Shown here piece by piece: positions 569 through 31,866 of a stretch of DNA of 44,827 bases. The translations under genes were made by a program, and so were the position numbers. Source of the DNA: a virus; IMG/VR virus record IMGVR_UViG_3300037628_000762, positions 1-44,827 of that record; one strand, written 5' to 3'. The notes under the pieces are model-generated. The model made no database searches and was not told the origin of the DNA. It worked only from the letters and a program-made list of their open reading frames with translations. Every line of letters begins with the position of its first letter. Positions within the stretch are counted from its first letter, which is position 1.

Positions 569-744
569 CCCGGTAACTCCCGTACACAAATTGACTCCAT
601 CGCCTTGTATTCTCTTGTGTGCTTCCACGCTTCCCCCTTCCACCACATACGTTCCAATTCGTCGAGATCGGTTTTCTTCCAGCCATAGCTCAGGCACCTG
701 GCCAAAAACTGCGCGCAGAGTTGCACTTTGGTTCGTTGGTTCAT
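565..744 (-). CDS. Hypothetical small protein, 59 aa
   Basis: The ATG at 744 overlaps the stop of the DUF5131 gene (ATGA) and follows GGGAG. The product (MNQRTKVQLCAQF...) is mainly helical, with Trp and charged residues, and ends in VRELPG, the same tail as the upstream DUF5131 protein. That shared tail is encoded by the duplicated ribosome-binding segment of the next gene. Function unknown. Confidence 0.72.
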   Translation of the reverse strand: MNQRTKVQLCAQFLARCLSYGWKKTDLDELERMWWKGEAWKHTREYKAMESICVRELPG

Positions 745-1700
745 CCCGGCAACTCCCTTACCCGAATCGACTCCGGCCATTCAGACGGGTCTTTCGATAC
801 ACGGCCGTTGATGTTCACTTGCTTCACGAAGACGGGGACGCCCGCGGGTTTGCCCTGTTCAACGATGCTCTCAATCCACTCGATCTTGCACGGACGACGC
901 TTTGGACCGGACTCGCAGCCGATGATGAGACCACCGATGCCACAGTTGCGTGCGCGGTACTCATCGCAAAACATGTTGACCCAATGACGGCCACTTGGGC
1001 AAGCATCACCCGCAACTGGACTATCTTCTTCAGGATCGCGTTCGGAGGCGACGAGATCATCAGGGTGAGGACACAATCGCAGATCCAACCCCTCCAACAA
1101 CGGCTCCAAGCTCAGCAACCGCACCGCAGCGGGCGTAGCAAGCAGATGAGGCACAGCCGCGTCAAGCTCGACCTGCGTCGAAACGGAGACGCCGAGCCAG
1201 ACGTTGGGAAGGGGGAATCGCAATCCCACCCTTTGAGGATACGTGATAGAATTCGCCCTGTGATCAATCCGATCGCATGCATTGTGCGAACCAAGTGGGC
1301 CATCCCCTGGACTATTCCAATACTCCGCCATCCGCTCCCACCGCTTCGTGAGCACGATAATGGTGTGCTGCGGACACAAGGCCGCCACCGCAAACGCCTG
1401 ATCGAGAATCTCGAACGGCACCTTCTCGTGAAGCGAGTCCCCCGAGAGGTTCATCGCGTAACGAGTCGGCTTCCGAACGTGCAGAGGAATCTCCAAACGA
1501 TCAGGGAACACCTGCACGTCCTCAAACGGCTGCTGGTACAAATTGTGTTTCAACCTGCTGGCGTTACGGCGCCGATAATGCCATTCGCGTGCCCAGCAGT
1601 TCTTGCACCCTGCACCCATGGGCGTACAACCGAACACCCAGTTCCAAGGCTCCCAATAGACACCTTTCGCCAGCCTGGCACTGGCACTATCTTTTGACAT
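741..1700 (-). CDS. DUF5131 (phage Gp37/Gp68-like) protein
   Basis: A protein of 319 residues with the N-terminal signature of the DUF5131 family: WEPWNWVFGCTPMGAGCKNC followed by WAREWHYRR. These closely spaced cysteines (about residues 26-36) are the family hallmark and probably bind a metal or cluster; the family's biochemical activity is not established. Further family-like segments are NLSGDSLHEKVP, the IIVLTKRWERM region, and VWLGVSVS and LSLEPLLEGLDL in the middle. The start at 1700 is chosen because it overlaps the upstream gene's 3' end and removes an unlikely N-terminal extension. It ends in VRELPG, overlapping the next start codon. DUF5131 genes are common in phages and often sit near DNA-modification genes, as here. 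Confidence 0.88.
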   Translation of the reverse strand: MSKDSASARLAKGVYWEPWNWVFGCTPMGAGCKNCWAREWHYRRRNASRLKHNLYQQPFEDVQVFPDRLEIPLHVRKPTRYAMNLSGDSLHEKVPFEILDQAFAVAALCPQHTIIVLTKRWERMAEYWNSPGDGPLGSHNACDRIDHRANSITYPQRVGLRFPLPNVWLGVSVSTQVELDAAVPHLLATPAAVRLLSLEPLLEGLDLRLCPHPDDLVASERDPEEDSPVAGDACPSGRHWVNMFCDEYRARNCGIGGLIIGCESGPKRRPCKIEWIESIVEQGKPAGVPVFVKQVNINGRVSKDPSEWPESIRVRELPG

Positions 1701-1875
1701 CGTTGCCGCCCCTGCTGCTTTTGGCACGCTGCTTTCGCTGCAACCATTTCCAACACAGTTTGCACGTCACGAAACGCCACTGAGGATGTGTCTTATACGA
1801 AGGATGCGCTATCCCAGTGCACGCCGGCCAACTGAGTACGTAACCCTGCCGCTTATGAATCTTCAGCTTTGCCAT
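1687..1875 (-). CDS. Hypothetical basic zinc-knuckle-like protein, 62 aa
   Basis: The ATG at 1875 (MAKLKIHKRQGYVLSW) lies within the 3' end of the preceding gene. Cysteines occur as one upstream Cys and a CKLC pair, and the C-terminus is strongly basic (QRKQRAKSSRGG), so a small nucleic-acid-binding protein is plausible. It overlaps the DUF5131 start by 14 bases. No family recognised. Confidence 0.7.
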   Translation of the reverse strand: MAKLKIHKRQGYVLSWPACTGIAHPSYKTHPQWRFVTCKLCWKWLQRKQRAKSSRGGNDVKR

Positions 1876-2443
1876 CGGCAAACTCCTCGCCACTTTTGGC
1901 AAGCATGGCGTCAGCAATCTCATACGCCATTCTTCCTATACGGACATAATCCGTGGGATCACTACCCGCTCTTGCCACTAACCCCCGCATCGCCATCGCC
2001 GCCAGCTCATTCCACCGAGACTCTTGAATCAGCTCGTTAAGCCAACGATAGCCGGACTTCGGAACCTTGAGGGCCACCGCCGCCCAAGGTCGCGAAATTG
2101 GCGATTCACGCATCGTGACCCCATGCTCCTTCAGCAGATTCAACAAGCTACGCCAGTCATCCTTTCGCCCCTCCGGCGGCTTTGGCTTGTCAGTCTTGCT
2201 CGCCGCCTCACAAGCACGTTCTCCAGCCCTAAACGCCGCCCAGGCATCGTCAGATACTTGTTTCCCCGCCCTTTCGCCTGCCGCATAGCCTTCGTTAAAG
2301 ATGTCGCCGCACAACTTACACCAAAGGTTGGTGCCATCCACCGAAGTAGCCTCGTAGCATTCAACTCCGCAAGGCTTTCTTAGAAGACACCGTGCACACG
2401 TAAACTCCCTTCCAGACTTGATACAACCTCCCAGTTTGAACAT
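1853..2443 (-). CDS. Hypothetical protein with N-terminal cysteine cluster, 196 aa
   Basis: The start at 2443 overlaps the preceding stop as TGATG. Residues 15-50 contain CARCLLRKPCGVEC and then WCKLCGD, a likely zinc ribbon. The remainder is helical and charged, with a central Lys/Pro-rich linker (KTDKPKPPEGRKDDW). Function unknown; it may bind DNA or RNA given the ribbon and its place between a VRR-NUC nuclease and DUF5131. Confidence 0.75.
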   Translation of the reverse strand: MFKLGGCIKSGREFTCARCLLRKPCGVECYEATSVDGTNLWCKLCGDIFNEGYAAGERAGKQVSDDAWAAFRAGERACEAASKTDKPKPPEGRKDDWRSLLNLLKEHGVTMRESPISRPWAAVALKVPKSGYRWLNELIQESRWNELAAMAMRGLVARAGSDPTDYVRIGRMAYEIADAMLAKSGEEFADGKAEDS

Positions 2444-2736
2444 CACATCTCAATCCCAAAAGAACCCAGAATCGCACGAACCTCGTCCACGGAGCGAACT
2501 ACCGCGCACACCACGCCCGCTTGCTTCATCCGCTCAAGCTGAACCTCCTGAATCTTCGACACGCTGCCCTTTGAACCCTTCACCTCAAAAGCAAACGGAA
2601 CGTTCCCCTTCCAAAACAAGATGTCCGGTACGCCCGCAGGCTGAAACCGACTGCCGTGGACCTTGTGCACGTAACTGTCGGGGATCAACCGAAGCCTGGC
2701 GAGAATCGCGGTGGTGATTACGGATTCAAGAGGCAT
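2443..2736 (-). CDS. VRR-NUC domain nuclease, 97 aa
   Basis: A stand-alone VRR-NUC (PD-(D/E)XK superfamily) protein. The catalytic pattern is visible: GVPDILFW supplies the Asp (about residue 37), AFEVKGSKG supplies ExK (about 51-53), and Q..QLERMKQAG is the downstream Gln helix typical of the family, followed by AVVRSVDEV. Phage VRR-NUC proteins act as small structure-specific or Holliday-junction-type nucleases. The first codons (MPLESVIT) copy the start of the Dam-type methylase gene immediately upstream, suggesting recombination at the gene boundary. The ribosome site is GGAAA. Confidence 0.9.
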   Translation of the reverse strand: MPLESVITTAILARLRLIPDSYVHKVHGSRFQPAGVPDILFWKGNVPFAFEVKGSKGSVSKIQEVQLERMKQAGVVCAVVRSVDEVRAILGSFGIEM

Positions 2737-2746
2737 GAATTTCCTT

Positions 2747-3676
2747 TCACATCAGAGAACGCCCATTCATCAACAAAACCTCCGGAGCATCGACCCTCTT
2801 AGCCCCGCGTGTGTTCTGCAAGTGAAGCTGCTTGCTGACCGTGCAGCTCCGCCTAGTCCAAGTCGGGTACAGCGTCGCAAGTTTCGGGTGATCATAGTAG
2901 CTGACTACCACGCGAGCATGCTTGAACCGGTGAAGGTGTTCAGCCAAACGGACGTGATCGTCTTCGTTCAACAGGTCACCATCGTGGAAATCGTGCAGGT
3001 AGCGACTCCCTCCGCCGGAGCCGGAGCGCGAATCGAGTATGTAAGGTGGGTCCACGTAGATCACAACGCCCCTTTCATCGCTGATGCGCGGAATGATATC
3101 GAAAGCGTCACGGTTGAGGATCGTGACTTTCCGGAGGCGCTGATGCCAGGCGGGGATGCTGTCGACCGCTGCCACGAACCGCGTCCCCCCGGATCCCCCG
3201 CCGGGCGTCCAGCGCACCGCCATGGCGAAGTCCTGCCTGACAGAACCGCTGGTGCCGTTGCGGCCAAGCCAGGACAAGATGAAGAACCAGTAGGCACCTA
3301 TCACGGAGTAGCAACCGTAAGAAAGCCAGCCAGGTGAGCAATCGTAGACCCTTGCGACTTCTCGGCGTGCTCGTTCATACAGTTCCTCCGAGCACAACGT
3401 ACCGATCAACCGCTCGTACAACTTTGGCGCCCCGCGGTCTGGATCATCGCTGGCCAGCACCCGAGCCAGATTCACCAGCCCACCGTGCAAATCGTTCACC
3501 GTCTCCATCGCCGCCACCGGCTTGGCCAGCAACACCGCCATCGACCCGCAGAACGGCTCGAAGTACGCCCGATGCGGCCCTAACTCCTGAACGATCGTGG
3601 AAGCCAGCGTCCGCTTTCCCCCGAACCATGGGGCGATGGCTGTTATCGATGCAGTGATTGTGGATTCAAGAGGCAC
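2747..3676 (-). CDS. D12-class (Dam-like) DNA N6-adenine methyltransferase
   Basis: A protein of 309 residues that transfers a methyl group from SAM to adenine N6. Motifs in D12 order: APWFGGKR near residue 16 (SAM site), EPFCGS near 40-45 (motif I FxPFxGS) and DPPY at about 209-212 (catalytic motif IV). The likely start is GTG at 3676, eleven bases inside the preceding gene and preceded by GGAG; an upstream ATG at 3703 lacks a good site. The 5' end duplicates the VRR-NUC 5' end. No restriction partner is adjacent, so protection against host restriction is the likely role. Confidence 0.92.
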   Translation of the reverse strand: MPLESTITASITAIAPWFGGKRTLASTIVQELGPHRAYFEPFCGSMAVLLAKPVAAMETVNDLHGGLVNLARVLASDDPDRGAPKLYERLIGTLCSEELYERARREVARVYDCSPGWLSYGCYSVIGAYWFFILSWLGRNGTSGSVRQDFAMAVRWTPGGGSGGTRFVAAVDSIPAWHQRLRKVTILNRDAFDIIPRISDERGVVIYVDPPYILDSRSGSGGGSRYLHDFHDGDLLNEDDHVRLAEHLHRFKHARVVVSYYDHPKLATLYPTWTRRSCTVSKQLHLQNTRGAKRVDAPEVLLMNGRSLM

Positions 3677-4490
3677 AACGTTTCTCCGTATCCTCCCGGT
3701 CAATCATGTCCCACGGATCAATCATCGACTCATGTCCCAACCGCGCCTTCGCAAACGGCTCCGTTACAGGTAACCCCTCAAGCTCACGCCAAATCGCCCA
3801 CAAGTGCGATAGAAACAACTTGGCCGTACGCCGCAAAGCCATGTTGTTGATCCGACCAAGTGTCCAGTCCGGCTGCTTCGTTGGAGGCGTCGTGTCCGCG
3901 CCCTTCGGCACATGAGCCGCGACAAACTTACTGCTCTTCACGTCGGTCTTCCAGATGACGTTGCCGTTGCGAACCTCGCGCGCAATCAAGTACGCCTTGT
4001 ACGTGTCATAAAGATCACGATACGGACCACCGCACTTGACGAACGACTGAGCGATCTTCCAACAGGTCATCTTCAACTCCGCACTCCAGTTGGCTTTCTG
4101 TCCCTTCTCGCGCTTGACAGCCTTTCCGTCCTTCACGTGAAGACCGGCATACGCCCATAATTTCGCAACGTTCGGGAACCGACCGACGTCACCGATGATC
4201 GCCACCAGAAGGCCGGACAGACGCGGACCAATCCCACGCACTCGAATCAACCACTGTGCGATGATCGGAAGGTCTTTGATCTCTCGCCAGACGATCCGCT
4301 CGTATTCCGTCTCCGTCTTACGCTCCAACTCCAACGCCTCGGCGAAGGTCTTCTCGATGTCCTCCTTGACGACAATGCCATCGCGGACAAGCCGCTGCAT
4401 TCGCAGATCAGATTGAATGCGCAGCTTCTGAGCATCGTACATCCGACGCACGATGATCTTCACATACTCCATCTGGGGTTCAGTTGTCAT
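3666..4490 (-). CDS. Stand-alone Transposase_20 (IS110-type C-terminal domain) protein
   Basis: A protein of 274 residues. Its centre matches the IS116/IS110/IS902 C-terminal domain: LIRVRGIGPRLSGLLVAIIG (about 81-100, a helix-hairpin-helix) and FPNVAKLWAYAGL (about 105-117), then a basic stretch. The N-terminal DEDD RuvC-like nuclease domain of IS110 recombinases is absent; residues 1-80 are instead a helical, charged segment. The serine normally found after the AGL block of active IS110 enzymes is not evident here (HVKDGKAVKREKG); a Ser appears later in NWSAELK. It is therefore probably not an autonomous transposase. No insertion-sequence ends are seen. The start is the ATG at 4490 with AAAGGAG ten bases upstream; the tandem array begins three bases beyond that site. 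Confidence 0.8.
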   Translation of the reverse strand: MTTEPQMEYVKIIVRRMYDAQKLRIQSDLRMQRLVRDGIVVKEDIEKTFAEALELERKTETEYERIVWREIKDLPIIAQWLIRVRGIGPRLSGLLVAIIGDVGRFPNVAKLWAYAGLHVKDGKAVKREKGQKANWSAELKMTCWKIAQSFVKCGGPYRDLYDTYKAYLIAREVRNGNVIWKTDVKSSKFVAAHVPKGADTTPPTKQPDWTLGRINNMALRRTAKLFLSHLWAIWRELEGLPVTEPFAKARLGHESMIDPWDMIDREDTEKRCAS

Positions 4491-4509
4491 AAGAGAATGA
4501 CTCCTTTCG

Positions 4510-4913
4510 GGTTCGCAACCTTTGCTTGGGATACACGAGTTCAGTGGCTCGCAACAGTTCATTGGGATACATTGACACCCTGGCTCGCAATCATTTGTTG
4601 GGATACACACCTACAGTGGCTCGCATGGGCTTTGTGGAATACATGCCGCCTGTGGCTCGCAAACGGAATCTGGGATACATCACCATGATGGCTCGCAGGA
4701 AGTCAATGGGATACACGCCATTGCTGGCTCGCAAATACTCCATGGAATACATTCGGCGTTGGGCTCGCACGACGTCGCTGGGATACAACCGTACCGTGGC
4801 TCGCATGGACTCGCTGGAATACACAATTCTTCTGGCTCGCATTTGGTCTATGGAATACAAGCGCCCATTGGCTCACAATGCTTCTTTGGGATACATTCCG
4901 GTCATGGCTCCTC
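4510..4913. repeat. 36-base bipartite tandem array with 22 variable spacers
   Basis: There are eleven units of exactly 36 bases: motif A (GGCTCGCA), 10 bases, motif B (GGGATACA or GGAATACA), 10 bases. The last spacer base is T in 21 of the 22 spacers, so each motif is effectively 9 bases with a 9-base variable spacer. Motif A is exact in units 2-10, GGTTCGCA in the first (4510-4517) and GGCTCACA in the eleventh (4870-4877); a broken copy GGCTCCTC (4906-4913) overlaps the stop codon of the helicase gene. Motif B is GGG in seven units and GGA in four. All 22 spacers differ. On the transcribed (minus) strand the motifs read TGCGAGCCA and TGTATCCCA. No minus-strand frame stays open through the array. 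Confidence 0.95.
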
Positions 4914-6663
4914 AATTCAACCACTCCCAAACGCTCGAAGTCTGACTGCCGGCAGGACGACAGACATACACGCTCTGCCTTGCACGTGTCAGACCCACGT
5001 ACATCTGACGCACGATCGAGTCCCGACCCTCGACGCTCTCGTTCCAGCCCACCCAGCCCCCATACGACAGATCAGGAAACAGAATCACCACGTCCGACTC
5101 CCCACCTTTGAACGAATGCACCGTTCCCACCCACAACCGCGGATCATCGACCAGAGCCTGCCGGCCGCGGCGACGCAGAACGTTGCACGGAAAACGAGCC
5201 GCCTGCTGCTTCTTCGCAAACACCCGCTCCAACCACCAGGCAAGCAGAGCATCCTGCTCGACCGCGCCACGCAACACCGCACCCAGGAACGCAGCCGGCT
5301 CCGGCTCGAACCAGCCGTCAAGGTCAGCCTGATCCACGATCGTCGTGCTGAGCACCGTCTCACGTGTCTCTTGCAGGACCGCCTCAAGCACCTTCTTTTG
5401 CCCGCGACGAATGACGCCCTTCGCACCGAGGACCGCCGACCAACGGGCGACGTCGAACGGCGACCAGGTGACAACCCTAACATTGGGGTTGTCGATGTTA
5501 GGGTTGTCGGCGTTCACCCCGAAGTCGAAACTGTCGTCCAACCCTGGTACCGGCGCCGCACCCGGAGATGCGCGTGCCTCGGACTGTAATTCTTGTCCTT
5601 CGAACGGCTTGATCAGCGCCAGCAGCCGCTCAGCCATCGTCGTGCCCGTGCCGCCGCGCAGCGGATTCCAGGCGCCCTGCTTCCGGCGCCACGGCTGGGC
5701 GAACGGCAGACCCCGACCGCGCAGCACCTCGAGCACCGGATTGAGCATGTAGCCGCACGTCGCCATGACCATGACGCTACGGCCGGCATCGAGATGCTCC
5801 TCCGCCAACGCGACGATCGGATCTGGATCGCCCCAGCACGCATCCAGCAACTCGGCCGAACCCGCCTCATCCCGCGGAGCGTACTCGATCGGCTCCCAAG
5901 TGCTGAGTTCACGAATCCAACTGCACGCCAAGGCGTGCACCGCCCGAGGGACGCGGTAGCTCTGGCTCAGAACCTCCCGGGCACGCACGCCGTCGAACAT
6001 CTGCGGATATGCCCCCCGCCAACCGTAGAGGCCCTGCCAGGGATCGCCAATCAGCACCAACTGCCCCGCAAGCTCCGCCCAGACGCGCAGCAGCTCCAGC
6101 TCCAGCCGGCTGTGATCCTGAGCCTCGTCCACATAAATCACGTCAGCATCACCCGGCGCGCCGAGGTCGCCAGCCTGCTCGATCACGTCGGAGAAGTCGA
6201 GCAGCCCCGCCCCCTGCTTCCAGCCGTCCCAATCCCGAGCAAACCGCGTGACGCCCTCCGGCCAATCGTCACGCGGGATCATCCGAGCCCGCAGCCGGTG
6301 GTACGCCGAGCTGAGCCTGTCCCCCATCGTGTCGCCGGCCGGCCCGTCGCCGAACGGAGCATCCGAGTCGACCGCCCCGCCGGTCAACTCCCATTCGGGG
6401 TACACCCCGTTCCAGTCCCGGATGGCTGCCCCAACAGCGAGCGCCGGCCTACCGAGCTGCCGGTAGGCGTGACCATGGAGCGTCCCGATCTGTGACTCGG
6501 GGATCGGCATCCCCCGGCCGGCGGCTTCACGGGCTGCCGCCCTGGTGAGCGATGTGACAAGGGGGGCGCGCCCCCCTGACACAGCTTCACGCACTAGGAC
6601 GGAGACTCGACGGGTCTTGCCGGTCCCCGGCGGGCCGACGACGATGCTGGTGGTCACAGACAC
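4912..6663 (-). CDS. UvrD/Rep-like superfamily 1 DNA helicase
   Basis: A protein of 583 residues with the SF1A motif set: Walker A GPPGTGKT (10-17), Walker B VDEAQD (178-183), motif III GDPWQGLYGWRGA (206-218), motif V GTVHSFKGGESDVVIL and motif VI MYVGLTRARQSV near the C-terminus. ATP-driven 3'-5' unwinding is the expected activity. It is shorter than bacterial UvrD (about 720 aa), mainly through a reduced 2B region. The start is GTG at 6663 behind GGAGGG. It shares the replication block with the primase-polymerase. Its stop codon touches the tandem array. Confidence 0.93.
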   Translation of the reverse strand: MSVTTSIVVGPPGTGKTRRVSVLVREAVSGGRAPLVTSLTRAAAREAAGRGMPIPESQIGTLHGHAYRQLGRPALAVGAAIRDWNGVYPEWELTGGAVDSDAPFGDGPAGDTMGDRLSSAYHRLRARMIPRDDWPEGVTRFARDWDGWKQGAGLLDFSDVIEQAGDLGAPGDADVIYVDEAQDHSRLELELLRVWAELAGQLVLIGDPWQGLYGWRGAYPQMFDGVRAREVLSQSYRVPRAVHALACSWIRELSTWEPIEYAPRDEAGSAELLDACWGDPDPIVALAEEHLDAGRSVMVMATCGYMLNPVLEVLRGRGLPFAQPWRRKQGAWNPLRGGTGTTMAERLLALIKPFEGQELQSEARASPGAAPVPGLDDSFDFGVNADNPNIDNPNVRVVTWSPFDVARWSAVLGAKGVIRRGQKKVLEAVLQETRETVLSTTIVDQADLDGWFEPEPAAFLGAVLRGAVEQDALLAWWLERVFAKKQQAARFPCNVLRRRGRQALVDDPRLWVGTVHSFKGGESDVVILFPDLSYGGWVGWNESVEGRDSIVRQMYVGLTRARQSVYVCRPAGSQTSSVWEWLN

Positions 6664-6700
6664 GGGGGACCCTCCAGACCTACAACGAAAACCTCTCTAT

Positions 6701-6780
6701 TCAAGACCAAAATCAAAGGAGACAACAACACCGGCCCCTTTTTGACTGTTGTGTTGTTGTTGTTGTTGTAGGGGTCTTGA
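6701..6780. other. Structured leader with GTT microsatellite
   Basis: The non-coding stretch upstream of the helicase gene (6664-6837) contains an inverted repeat of TCAAGACC (6701-6708) with GGTCTTGA (6773-6780). Inside it are complementary CAACAACA and GTT-rich tracts (about 6723-6730 and 6747-6769) and a GGCCCC/GGGG pair. On the minus strand it would form an 80-base hairpin in the helicase mRNA leader. No clear promoter or ORF is seen here. Confidence 0.5.
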
Positions 6781-6837
6781 TATAGGGTTTTTTGCAGAAA
6801 AGCTCACCACAGAAGCACCACACAAACAACTGCATTT

Positions 6838-8634
6838 TCACTCCACTTCAGTAGGGGCGTACGTTTTACCGTCGCCAGCCTGTGATATTGCAAAATGCCC
6901 TTTGTCGTCTCTCCAATACCGTTGGGCTTTGATATTTCGGTTTGTGGGCGTAACTACGGTCGATACGAATCCTGCGGCCTGGAGTGCTTTTCGTACAGTC
7001 TGCTTCGTCAGGTTACCGTACCCTGCCGTCGCCGCCAGGTATTTCCAGACCCCATCGAGCCTAATGTGAAGCCGGCCGGCTCGCCGAAGAAGGGCTTTCT
7101 TCTCGATTGCGATATCCAGTCCCTCGGTACAAATGTGCCGCCCCTCGCCTGCGGCCAGATAAGCTGTGACCCACTCGACCGCTTCGGCCTCACGGCTCTC
7201 CTCGGGGTTCTCGATCGTCTCTCGGATGATCGCCAGGTATCGACACACTCCATCCCAGGTTGAGTTTTTCACCCGTGGCGGGAGGATACCTACCGTCTGG
7301 TAGACCGCATTTCGGAACCTGGTTGGGCTCGTAACGGCCTCCACGGGGCCGATCACGATCGCCCGTCCGTCGTCGAGAATCAGCGTGTAGTCCGCATCCG
7401 CGGCGCCGTACTGCACCCAGCGGGCGATGGGAACGCGCAGCACTTTCTGGAGCCGCGCGAGGATGTCTGCCCGCGATGGGTCCGTCGGATTGTCGCTTTT
7501 CGCCCCCGCCGGTGGGGGCGACTGCGACTGCGATGGCTCTGTGATTTCCTCGACAGCCTGCTCTTCGTCGCGTCGCTGGCGAGCCTTGTGAATAGTGTCC
7601 TCAATGTACTTACGCCGGGCCGCCTTTTGCGGGTCCCGGCTGTACATAATGCGCCACAAGTAGATCAGGTCGGCGATTCGTTGATCGGACCATTCGAGGA
7701 GCACTCCGAAATGGGCGAGTGCCATGTCGTAACTGGAAGCTGAGCCGTCGGGCAAGTCGCGGCGTTTTCCGTTCCACGTTGCCTTGAACCGCGTGTCGAC
7801 CGCGGTCATCCGCTCGACTTGGGCCAGGTTGACCGTGAGCTGCCGCCCCGGCCGCAGGTCGAGGGTGCCCGACGATGGAGCGGAGTCTGTGGACCGCAAC
7901 AGTGCTCCTTGTACCGTCATCTCCACGCACATCGACTCCAGGTAGTCCGGCTCGTACCTCAGCAGGGGGTCTGAGGCCACCGCTGTGACCTGCACCGGCT
8001 TAGCTTTCCGGTTCATCGTCCCGGGTGGCCGCAGGACCCGTGCGAGGTCGTGAACGCTGTCTACGGTGTATCCGTTGGCGTGAGCCACGGCCTTGATGGT
8101 CGCTCCCCAGCGTTCGGAGAGGCGGACCGGATCGTCGGCGATGTGGAGTTTCAGAGTAACGGCATCCTCCGGGGGCATTGGGACCGGCAGGAACTCTTTG
8201 AACAGCCACCAGGGCTGCAGGCCGTGCCCGCTGTGCACGACGATGGACGGCGGGACCCCGAGCCGTTCGATGATGTGGGTGGCGGTATCGAGGTCCGGCG
8301 GGATGTTCTTGCCTTTGTGGTTCGGCCCGAAGTCAATGTCCGCCCAGAGCCCGACCAGGCCGACCACGTCACTTGCCTTGCCGCGTCCACTGGTGATGTC
8401 CGGCTGGTAGAGGCAGCAGCCGAAGTAGATGTTGGGTCTGAGAGCCAGGTCGTTCGGGATTGCGAGAGGCCCGACGCCTGGAGCCGGATCGTTGCGGTAG
8501 GCGATGTACTTCGCTGCCTCGTTGCAGTCTTCAAACCAGCGCGTACGCTTATCCGGCAGGGTCCAGATGCTGATGAGTGCATCCGGCCCTGCTGCGTCGT
8601 CGAACAGAAGATGAAAGAACGTCGCCGCGTCCAT
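6838..8634 (-). CDS. AEP-type primase-polymerase (RepB-primase-like)
   Basis: A protein of 598 residues. The N-terminal third has archaeo-eukaryotic primase landmarks: WADIDFG with the metal-binding DxD (about 99-101), the nucleotide-site motif HSGHGLQPWWLFKEF (134-148) and LARVLRPPGTMNRK (197-210), as in RepB-type primases of plasmids and phages. A Ser/Pro-rich linker (near residue 370-385) leads to a C-terminal region that I do not recognise; no helicase motifs are present. It likely primes and perhaps extends DNA. No other polymerase is encoded, so it may be the only phage replicative synthesis enzyme. The ATG at 8634 follows AGGAA. Confidence 0.82.
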   Translation of the reverse strand: MDAATFFHLLFDDAAGPDALISIWTLPDKRTRWFEDCNEAAKYIAYRNDPAPGVGPLAIPNDLALRPNIYFGCCLYQPDITSGRGKASDVVGLVGLWADIDFGPNHKGKNIPPDLDTATHIIERLGVPPSIVVHSGHGLQPWWLFKEFLPVPMPPEDAVTLKLHIADDPVRLSERWGATIKAVAHANGYTVDSVHDLARVLRPPGTMNRKAKPVQVTAVASDPLLRYEPDYLESMCVEMTVQGALLRSTDSAPSSGTLDLRPGRQLTVNLAQVERMTAVDTRFKATWNGKRRDLPDGSASSYDMALAHFGVLLEWSDQRIADLIYLWRIMYSRDPQKAARRKYIEDTIHKARQRRDEEQAVEEITEPSQSQSPPPAGAKSDNPTDPSRADILARLQKVLRVPIARWVQYGAADADYTLILDDGRAIVIGPVEAVTSPTRFRNAVYQTVGILPPRVKNSTWDGVCRYLAIIRETIENPEESREAEAVEWVTAYLAAGEGRHICTEGLDIAIEKKALLRRAGRLHIRLDGVWKYLAATAGYGNLTKQTVRKALQAAGFVSTVVTPTNRNIKAQRYWRDDKGHFAISQAGDGKTYAPTEVE

Positions 8635-31145: not shown

Positions 31146-31505
31146 CTACCTGTAAGTGGCGTTCACCTTGGCCGTTGCACTCGCGACACCCGTCAACCGA
31201 ACCGTAAAAGCATCACCCATAGGAATCGGAATCCCGCCGACCGGACCAACATCCGAGAAATCCCACGTCCAATGACCCGGCCCGGTAACGGTAACCTGTT
31301 TATGAACCACCTCACTCAAAGGACCACTACGAATAGAAAGCTCACCGGCACCCGCGGCGCCCGTATAGCTGACTTCGACAGTCACCAATACGTGCGAGAC
31401 CCCCGCCACCGCAGACACGACAGCCGAAGCCGTCGCACCTTCCGCCGCATCCAGCTTTGAAACCAAAACGATCGGCACACCCTGAACCGCAGCATTTCCA
31501 CGCAT
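31146..31505 (-). CDS. Small virion-type protein, paralogue 2, 119 aa
   Basis: Begins MRGNAAVQGVPIVLVSKLDA and is beta-rich with a GPGHWTWDF strand and VGPVGGIPIPMG turn. It is a clear duplicate of the next upstream gene (31513-31866). Both have Ig-like or jelly-roll character, so decoration or tail-hub proteins are plausible. Confidence 0.7.
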   Translation of the reverse strand: MRGNAAVQGVPIVLVSKLDAAEGATASAVVSAVAGVSHVLVTVEVSYTGAAGAGELSIRSGPLSEVVHKQVTVTGPGHWTWDFSDVGPVGGIPIPMGDAFTVRLTGVASATAKVNATYR

Positions 31506-31512
31506 AGCCGCT

Positions 31513-31866
31513 CTACCTGTAGGTGATGTTCAACTTACCAACTGACGTACCAGTAGCAGCCCCAAGCTCGACCACGAGATCGGCACCCATGGCGACCGGA
31601 ATTCCACCAACCGGCCCGATCTTCGAGAAGTCCATTCGCCAGTGACCAACGCCGTTCACGTCAACTTCCTTCACGACGGTGGACCCATCCTTGATCTGCA
31701 GCTTGCCCACAGGAGTGCCGATCGAATAGCTGTACTCGACACTCACGAGAACATGAGATTGGCCCGCAACACCGTCAACCGTCACGTTAGCCGCCGTATC
31801 CGCAGCCGCATCGAGCTTCGATTTCAAAACGATCGGCACACCCTGAACCGCAGCATTTCCACGCAT
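31513..31866 (-). CDS. Small virion-type protein, paralogue 1, 117 aa
   Basis: Begins MRGNAAVQGVPIVLKSKLDA; shares GVGHWRMDF and IGPVGGIPVAMG with the gene downstream. The first 42 bases of the two genes are identical (31464-31505 and 31825-31866), while the rest has diverged, so the 5' end has been homogenised or is under special constraint. Function unknown. Confidence 0.72.
   Translation of the reverse strand: MRGNAAVQGVPIVLKSKLDAAADTAANVTVDGVAGQSHVLVSVEYSYSIGTPVGKLQIKDGSTVVKEVDVNGVGHWRMDFSKIGPVGGIPVAMGADLVVELGAATGTSVGKLNITYR

What the first reader, a model, noticed from the sequence alone, without database searches (positions are those of the whole stretch)
3666..4490. IS110 C-terminal domain protein without its nuclease half
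The family domain (GIGPRLSG helix-hairpin-helix, LWAYAGL block) is intact, but the DEDD RuvC-like domain is missing and the usual catalytic serine position looks substituted. It sits inside a coupled phage operon without insertion-sequence ends, so it appears domesticated. Its N-terminal 80 residues are a helical extension instead.
Basis: partly seen in the sequence, partly recalled or inferred. Interest (0 to 1): 0.72.

Follow-up and report, generated by a model that had tools for sequence, protein, structure and literature searches.

The report
Phage TIGR-TasA guide-RNA array locus
This phage gene is not a broken transposase but the protein half of TIGR-Tas, a recently described RNA-guided DNA-targeting system, and the guide-RNA array that goes with it lies directly beside the gene; it is a good new example of a known kind.

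Summary
The protein is real: minus strand, 4490 to 3666, 274 aa, an IS110-type C-terminal domain with no nuclease half. The "domesticated IS110" reading is not supported. The protein passes NCBI's TIGR-Tas model (179 bits, cut-off 100) and fails its IS110 model (27 bits, cut-off 140). Its nearest solved structures are TasR and TasH, and its "helical extension" is the Nop-family coiled coil. Immediately upstream (4910-4513, minus strand) is a textbook TIGR dual-repeat array. It has 11 units of exactly 36 nt: edge TGCGAGCCA, 9-nt spacer A, loop TGTATYCCA, 9-nt spacer B. All 22 spacers are distinct, and both repeats carry the TG/CCA box D/box C motifs. The locus is therefore TIGR-TasA, the nuclease-less type: a guide-RNA-programmed DNA binder that probably blocks rather than cuts. 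Target searches (own phage, 1.45 Mb of fetched loci, three guides across IMG/VR) gave only chance-level matches, so its targets remain unknown. An architectural point I did not see in the sections read of the founding paper: here and in relatives, array ends sit directly on stop codons and on the tasA Shine-Dalgarno. This suggests co-transcription and possible autoregulation. New member of a known kind.

The parts
3666..4490 (-). tasA: 274-aa solo Nop-domain (TIGR-associated) protein
   Evidence: NCBIfam NF052498 TIGR_Tas_endo 179.3 bits vs cut-off 100; IS110 model 26.7 vs 140; PDB phmmer TasR 9mty E 6.6e-37
4278..4481 (-). coiled-coil region of TasA (residues 4-71, two helices)
   Evidence: AlphaFold2 model, pLDDT about 90; model 3-265 aligns to TasR residues 108-322, TasH about 62-307, IS621 124-321
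4008..4250 (-). Transposase_20 / RNA-binding C-terminal domain (residues 81-161); Asp121 (codon 4130-4128) at the IS110 Ser position
4513..4910 (-). TIGR dual-repeat array: 11 units of 36 nt (edge TGCGAGCCA, 9-nt spacer A, loop TGTATYCCA, 9-nt spacer B), truncated edge repeats at both ends
4501..4505 (-). Shine-Dalgarno AGGAG of tasA, 7 nt after the last truncated edge repeat (TGCGA)
   Evidence: direct sequence
4912..6663 (-). upstream gene, UvrD-like helicase; its stop codon (4914-4912) lies 4 nt before the first box C of the array
2747..3703 (-). downstream D12-class DNA adenine methyltransferase, start overlapping the end of tasA
2443..2736 (-). VRR-NUC / resolvase-like nuclease further down the operon (no shown link to tasA)

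Best explanation
The locus is a phage-borne TIGR-TasA system. The array at 4910-4513 is transcribed with the replication operon (no promoter or terminator was detected beside it) and processed into about eleven 36-nt tigRNAs. A TasA dimer held by its coiled coil binds the box D (UG) and box C (CCA) motifs of edge and loop repeats. Each tigRNA then pairs spacer A with one DNA strand and spacer B with the other at an 18-bp target. As TasA has no nuclease, the complex most likely acts by occupying and bending DNA (blocking transcription, replication or packaging of a competing element, or regulating host or phage genes) rather than by cutting. Shown here: protein family, predicted fold, array anatomy, absence of a nuclease domain. 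Inferred from PMC12045711 for relatives: processing, pairing geometry, DNA bend. Inferred with no direct support: the identity of the targets and the biological purpose.
For: NCBIfam TIGR_Tas_endo 9.5e-53, well over cut-off. phmmer hits TasR at 6.6e-37 and TasH at 5.6e-12 but IS621 only at 0.61. AF2 model pLDDT 91, pTM 0.85; Foldseek best hits are TasR 2.4e-12 and TasH 3.5e-11, IS621 8.4e-5; VIA Z 22.0 TasR, 21.5 TasH, 15.8 ISCro4, 15.5 IS621, 7.7 Nop5. Array: 11 units, loop-to-loop step exactly 36 ten times out of ten, 22 of 22 spacers distinct, loop TG...CCA in 11 of 11, as described in PMC12045711 sections 4 and 8. Period-36 arrays lie near the tas gene in L002, L003 and at least six further relatives. 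Nearest relative L002 (59-61% identical) uses the same edge repeat, with arrays on both sides of tas. In a 37-row tree the seven IS110 rows form their own 100/100 group and the window pairs with L002 at 100/99.
Against: No expression or processing data. No target found above chance: own genome, 147 tigRNAs against 1.45 Mb of loci, 1 hit at one mismatch and 35 at two against null 2.4 and 31.6, three guides in IMG/VR against one mispaired control. No terminator after the array, unlike typical arrays in the paper. In the tree the split of the other Tas rows from IS110 plus the one TasH row has only 76/72 support, and TasH sits on a long branch.
Confidence: 0.88

Rival explanations
1. A domesticated IS110 transposase: an IS110 inserted in an ancestor, lost its DEDD RuvC domain and ends, and its C-terminal domain was kept for another use.
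For: Pfam, PHROGs (phrog_4285 'transposase') and several GenBank records of phage relatives name the family as transposase; the fold is shared with IS621 (Z 15.5).
Against: Much closer to TasR and TasH than to IS110 in sequence and fold; all seven IS110 sampled form a separate group; relatives carry the same kind of array beside the gene. PMC12045711 argues that the solo Nop protein is the ancestral form.
Confidence: 0.04
2. A truncated, decaying IS element remnant with no function.
For: The nuclease half is absent.
Against: Intact ORF with its own Shine-Dalgarno; 59-61% identical full-length relative in another phage; conserved residues kept; intact 11-unit array whose repeats are conserved while spacers vary.
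Confidence: 0.01
3. TasA works with a nuclease supplied in trans from the same operon (here the VRR-NUC protein at 2443-2736; in L002 a RuvC-like protein at 7228-7884), so the pair cleaves guided targets.
For: A resolvase-like nuclease gene lies within about 2 kb of tasA in both the window and L002.
Against: The two nucleases are from different families, phage resolvases are common (general knowledge), and of ten neighbouring proteins scanned from nine relatives only L002's RuvC was a nuclease of this type.
Confidence: 0.05
4. The upstream repeats are replication iterons or a repetitive coding sequence unrelated to the protein.
For: The array lies in a replication module, and one plus-strand frame is open through it.
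Against: Two alternating 9-mers with TG and CCA ends and fully variable 9-nt spacers match the TIGR rules; all three minus-strand frames contain stops; steps of 34, 35 and 37-38 nt in relatives' arrays would break any reading frame.
Confidence: 0.02

Closest known systems
TIGR-Tas, TasA type with dual-repeat array (PMC12045711; e.g. the Flavonifractor plautii locus named there)
   Same: Solo Nop-domain protein without nuclease; array of alternating ~9-nt edge and loop repeats with 9-nt spacers, 36-nt period, TG/CCA boxes, truncated edges at both ends; carried by a tailed phage.
   Different: No detected terminator after the array: it runs from the preceding gene's stop codon to the tasA Shine-Dalgarno, inside a replication operon; no parB-like partner among the neighbours scanned.
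TasR (PDB 9mty) and TasH (PDB 9w04, 21kl and others)
   Same: Same Nop fold over residues 3-265, Z 22.0 and 21.5.
   Different: No N-terminal RuvC or HNH nuclease: the model aligns only from residue 108 (TasR) or about 62 (TasH) onwards.
IS110-family bridge-RNA transposases (IS621, ISCro4)
   Same: Shared C-terminal RNA-binding fold, Z 15-16.
   Different: No DEDD domain in the record, Ser replaced by Asp121, below NCBI's IS110 cut-off, a repeat array beside the gene.
VIPR (PMC13142463; abstract and outline seen only)
   Same: Phage-encoded repeat-guided DNA recognition reported to act against competing phages.
   Different: Different protein (RAMP) and a different RNA code (GGY/NN); analogy only.

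Membership tests
TIGR-Tas | Nop-domain protein of the Tas family | tested here: met
   NF052498 179.3 bits over cut-off 100; TasR Z 22.0
TIGR-Tas | Adjacent array of two alternating 8-12-nt repeats with about 9-nt spacers | tested here: met
   11 units, 9-nt repeats, 9-nt spacers
TIGR-Tas | Box D (TG) and box C (CCA) in both repeats | tested here: met
   Loop TG...CCA in 11 of 11; edges vary only at the array ends and in single repeats such as TGTGAGCCA and TGCGAGCCC
TIGR-Tas | Array starts and ends with truncated edge repeats | tested here: met
   GAGCCA at the start, TGCGA at the end
TIGR-Tas | Predicted rho-independent terminator after the array (typical, not essential) | tested here: not met
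   None at the array; the tasA Shine-Dalgarno follows directly
TIGR-Tas | Processing into 36-nt tigRNAs bound by the protein | not testable with these tools
   Needs small-RNA sequencing
TIGR-Tas | Guided binding of an 18-bp DNA target | not testable with these tools
   Needs a binding assay; sequence search for natural targets gave chance-level matches only
TasA subtype | No nuclease domain | tested here: met
   Model covers residues 1-274 without RuvC or HNH; only Transposase_20 passes its Pfam cut-off
IS110 transposase | N-terminal DEDD RuvC-like domain | tested here: not met
   0 of 1 record
IS110 transposase | Catalytic serine in the C-terminal domain | tested here: not met
   Asp121 in the window; S in 7 of 7 IS110 aligned
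IS110 transposase | Score above NCBI transpos_IS110 cut-off | tested here: not met
   26.7 of 140 bits
Box C/D Nop5 | Archaeal or eukaryotic Nop5 with fibrillarin and L7Ae partners | tested here: inconclusive
   Only a remote fold match, Z 7.7; partners not searched for

The most novel reading that the evidence does not exclude
In TasA loci the array doubles as a regulatory leader or tail. It is fused to stop codons and to the tasA Shine-Dalgarno, so that binding or maturation of the last tigRNA unit controls tasA translation. Guide supply and protein would thus be balanced by autoregulation within one operon transcript, with no array promoter. Support: 3 of 3 dual-repeat arrays found upstream of tas end in TGCG(A) 1-7 nt before the Shine-Dalgarno (window, L002, L015), and 7 of 10 downstream arrays start within about 10 nt of the tas stop codon.
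Probability: 0.15. Interest if true: 0.55.

Novelty: new member of a known kind. Interest (0 to 1): 0.36.

Why it matters
TasA is described as the commonest TIGR effector, yet what it does and what it targets are open (PMC12045711 Discussion). A compact phage locus with a clean 11-guide array in a replication operon is a usable test case. The wider observation that this 'phage transposase' family (phrog_4285, 'transposase' in several mycobacteriophage records) consists of Tas proteins means that cultured phages with laboratory hosts are available for testing.

Tried and rejected
Self-targeting: all 11 tigRNAs against the own record, with the target taken as spacer A followed by the reverse complement of spacer B and a gap of 0-2 bp. 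Best matches had 3-5 mismatches, the same as mispaired controls. That geometry is my derivation from the paper's 8-nt 3' overhang and 'C - 5' rule. The paper states the cut position in two ways, and only one fits the overhang; the other three geometries gave no excess either (best 2-5 mismatches).

Related-phage targeting: 147 of 157 extracted units (10 dropped because a spacer was not 8-10 nt; some units called in L010, L012 and L017 are doubtful) against 1.45 Mb of loci: no excess. IMG/VR exact scans for 3 of 11 guides gave 2, 4 and 4 stretches (2, 3 and 2 after merging near-identical contigs) and one mispaired control gave 3 (2 after merging); hits lay in unrelated contigs. The terminase of the window gave only 8 distant loci, so close relatives of this phage are too few for a competitor search. 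The window's edge-plus-loop pair occurs in no other IMG/VR contig (0).

Structured RNA: the array does not fold better than shuffles (z +0.83) and has no Rfam match, as expected for unprocessed dual-repeat arrays. A promoter scan of 2600-7000 found nothing above shuffles.

Spacer bias: position 4 of spacer B is A in 10 of 11 units; 60 of 20,000 within-spacer shuffles reach this in any column. Not repeated in the other arrays, so not built upon.

Full report
Observation. The gene is on the minus strand, 4490 to 3666, 274 aa. It carries Pfam Transposase_20 at residues 81-161 (E 2e-7). No DEDD_Tnp_IS110 domain is found in the whole 44,827-base virus record. Aligned with seven IS110 transposases, the column of the conserved 'SG' serine is Asp121 in the window protein (the catalytic role of this serine is recalled).

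The array. Directly upstream on the same strand lies a 36-nt-period array: 11 units, alternating edge TGCGAGCCA and loop TGTATYCCA, with 9-nt spacers and 22 distinct spacers. Period-36 identity is 0.61 against a maximum of 0.34 in 1000 shuffles over periods 20-60. Both repeats begin TG and end CCA (exceptions: the end edges and one internal edge that ends CCC). This is the TIGR dual-repeat anatomy described in PMC12045711 (sections 4-10, the figure legends and one search for passages read), including truncated edges at both ends. It starts 4 nt after the stop codon of a UvrD-like helicase gene and ends 7 nt before the tasA Shine-Dalgarno. No promoter or terminator is detectable at it, so it is probably transcribed with the operon. 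As single-stranded RNA it is not specially structured (z +0.83).

The protein. NCBIfam TIGR_Tas_endo scores 179.3 bits (cut-off 100), IS110 26.7 (cut-off 140). That model's name says 'endonuclease', but this protein has no nuclease domain. PDB sequence search: TasR 6.6e-37, TasH 5.6e-12, IS621 0.61; with a 28-row profile 2.7e-62, 1.8e-40 and 0.0024. The AlphaFold2 model has pLDDT 91 and pTM 0.85. VIA-align gives Z 22.0 to TasR over 202 residues (2.3 A), 21.5 to TasH, 15.8 to ISCro4, 15.5 to IS621 and 7.7 to Nop5. The model's residues 3-265 align from TasR residue 108 and IS621 residue 124 onward, and from about residue 62 in TasH, so what is missing is exactly the N-terminal nuclease part. Helices 4-36 and 42-71 are the coiled coil, not a novel extension.

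Relatives. tblastn finds 87 phage records with a relative, 76 of them Mycobacterium phages, 48 with a place covering at least 80% of the query. An alignment-based scan of IMG/VR confirmed 72 loci out of 135 pattern matches; genome contigs gave 7 of 37. Period-36 arrays near tas are clear in L002, L003 (Microcystis phage Mvi-JY20), L011, L012, L013, L015, L016 and L038, and weaker in L010, L014 and L017. L009 showed none in the scan. The edge sequence TGCGAGC(C) recurs across many of them. In a 37-row tree, IS110 rows form one 100/100 group; the window pairs with L002 (100/99); the 12 rows labelled as dual-repeat are on one side of a branch relative to the labelled IS110 and TasH rows (support 76/72), with 17 unlabelled rows also there, including a 14-row group at 100/100 that holds the actinophage rows. 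The TasH row is a long branch, so its place is unsure.

Array ends. Of 27 tas loci whose flanks were printed, the three with a dual-repeat array upstream of tas (window, L002, L015) end in TGCG(A) followed within 1-7 nt by the Shine-Dalgarno. Among ten loci with a dual-repeat array downstream (L002, L003, L010-L014, L016, L017, L038), seven have the first box C within about 10 nt of the tas stop codon (L002, L003, L011, L012, L013, L014, L016); L010, L017 and L038 do not. L011 and L012 are close relatives and count nearly as one. I did not see this stated in the sections of PMC12045711 that I read; my paper searches were made, and no supplement was read.

Function. By the published rules for TasR and TasH, each tigRNA would bind an 18-bp site, spacer A on one strand and spacer B on the other. 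Without a nuclease, binding and bending are the expected outputs, which the paper itself proposes for TasA. The purpose is open: I found no target in the own genome, in 1.45 Mb of fetched loci or for three guides in IMG/VR (control 76). The absence of self-targets fits a foreign target (another phage, plasmid or host), but it is weak evidence.

Verdict. The finding is real and its identity is firm, but it is a new member of a family published in 2025. The domestication story is replaced by membership of TIGR-Tas. Interest lies in the clean array, the operon architecture and the fact that phage databases still label this family as transposase (phrog_4285, E 1e-47).

Noticed in passing
L006 (Rhodococcus phage Peregrin) 2560-3000, tas gene at 3001: Upstream of the actinophage tas gene is a series of long stem-loops (fold z -10.5, 0 of 100 shuffles as good) with box-like CTAATACCCA motifs in the loops: probably a TIGR stem-loop array in a cultured phage; the last stem again abuts the Shine-Dalgarno.
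   Followed up: partly
L005 (Mycobacterium phage BPBiebs31) 2618-2956, gene 74 at 2956: The product annotated 'transposase' passes the TIGR-Tas model at 232 bits and has a 338-bp gap upstream with self-complementary and box C-like sequences by eye; a laboratory-host phage in which to test TasA.
   Followed up: partly
L016 10687-11800: A 31-unit array with reused spacers: same A with different B, same B with different A, and a two-unit block repeated 720 bp away. This suggests arrays grow and re-pair spacers by unequal recombination between repeats.
   Followed up: no
window 741-1727, minus strand: DUF5131 protein (2.3e-50) that also hits PADLOC candidate-defence models PDC-M41B and PDC-M30B.
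   Followed up: no
window 4518-4886, spacer B position 4: A in 10 of 11 spacers B (60 of 20,000 shuffles reach this in any column); not seen in the other arrays.
   Followed up: partly
L002 7228-7884: RuvC-family resolvase gene about 1 kb upstream of tasA (PF02075, 3e-6).
   Followed up: no
L013 10867-11727: A DNA methylase gene (N6_N4_Mtase, 3e-28) follows the tas gene and its array; the window's tasA is also followed by a DNA methyltransferase, of another class.
   Followed up: no
window 31146-31866: Two adjacent ORFs (119 and 117 aa) begin with nearly the same sequence (MRGNAAVQGVPIVL...), a tandem gene duplication next to the head genes.
   Followed up: no
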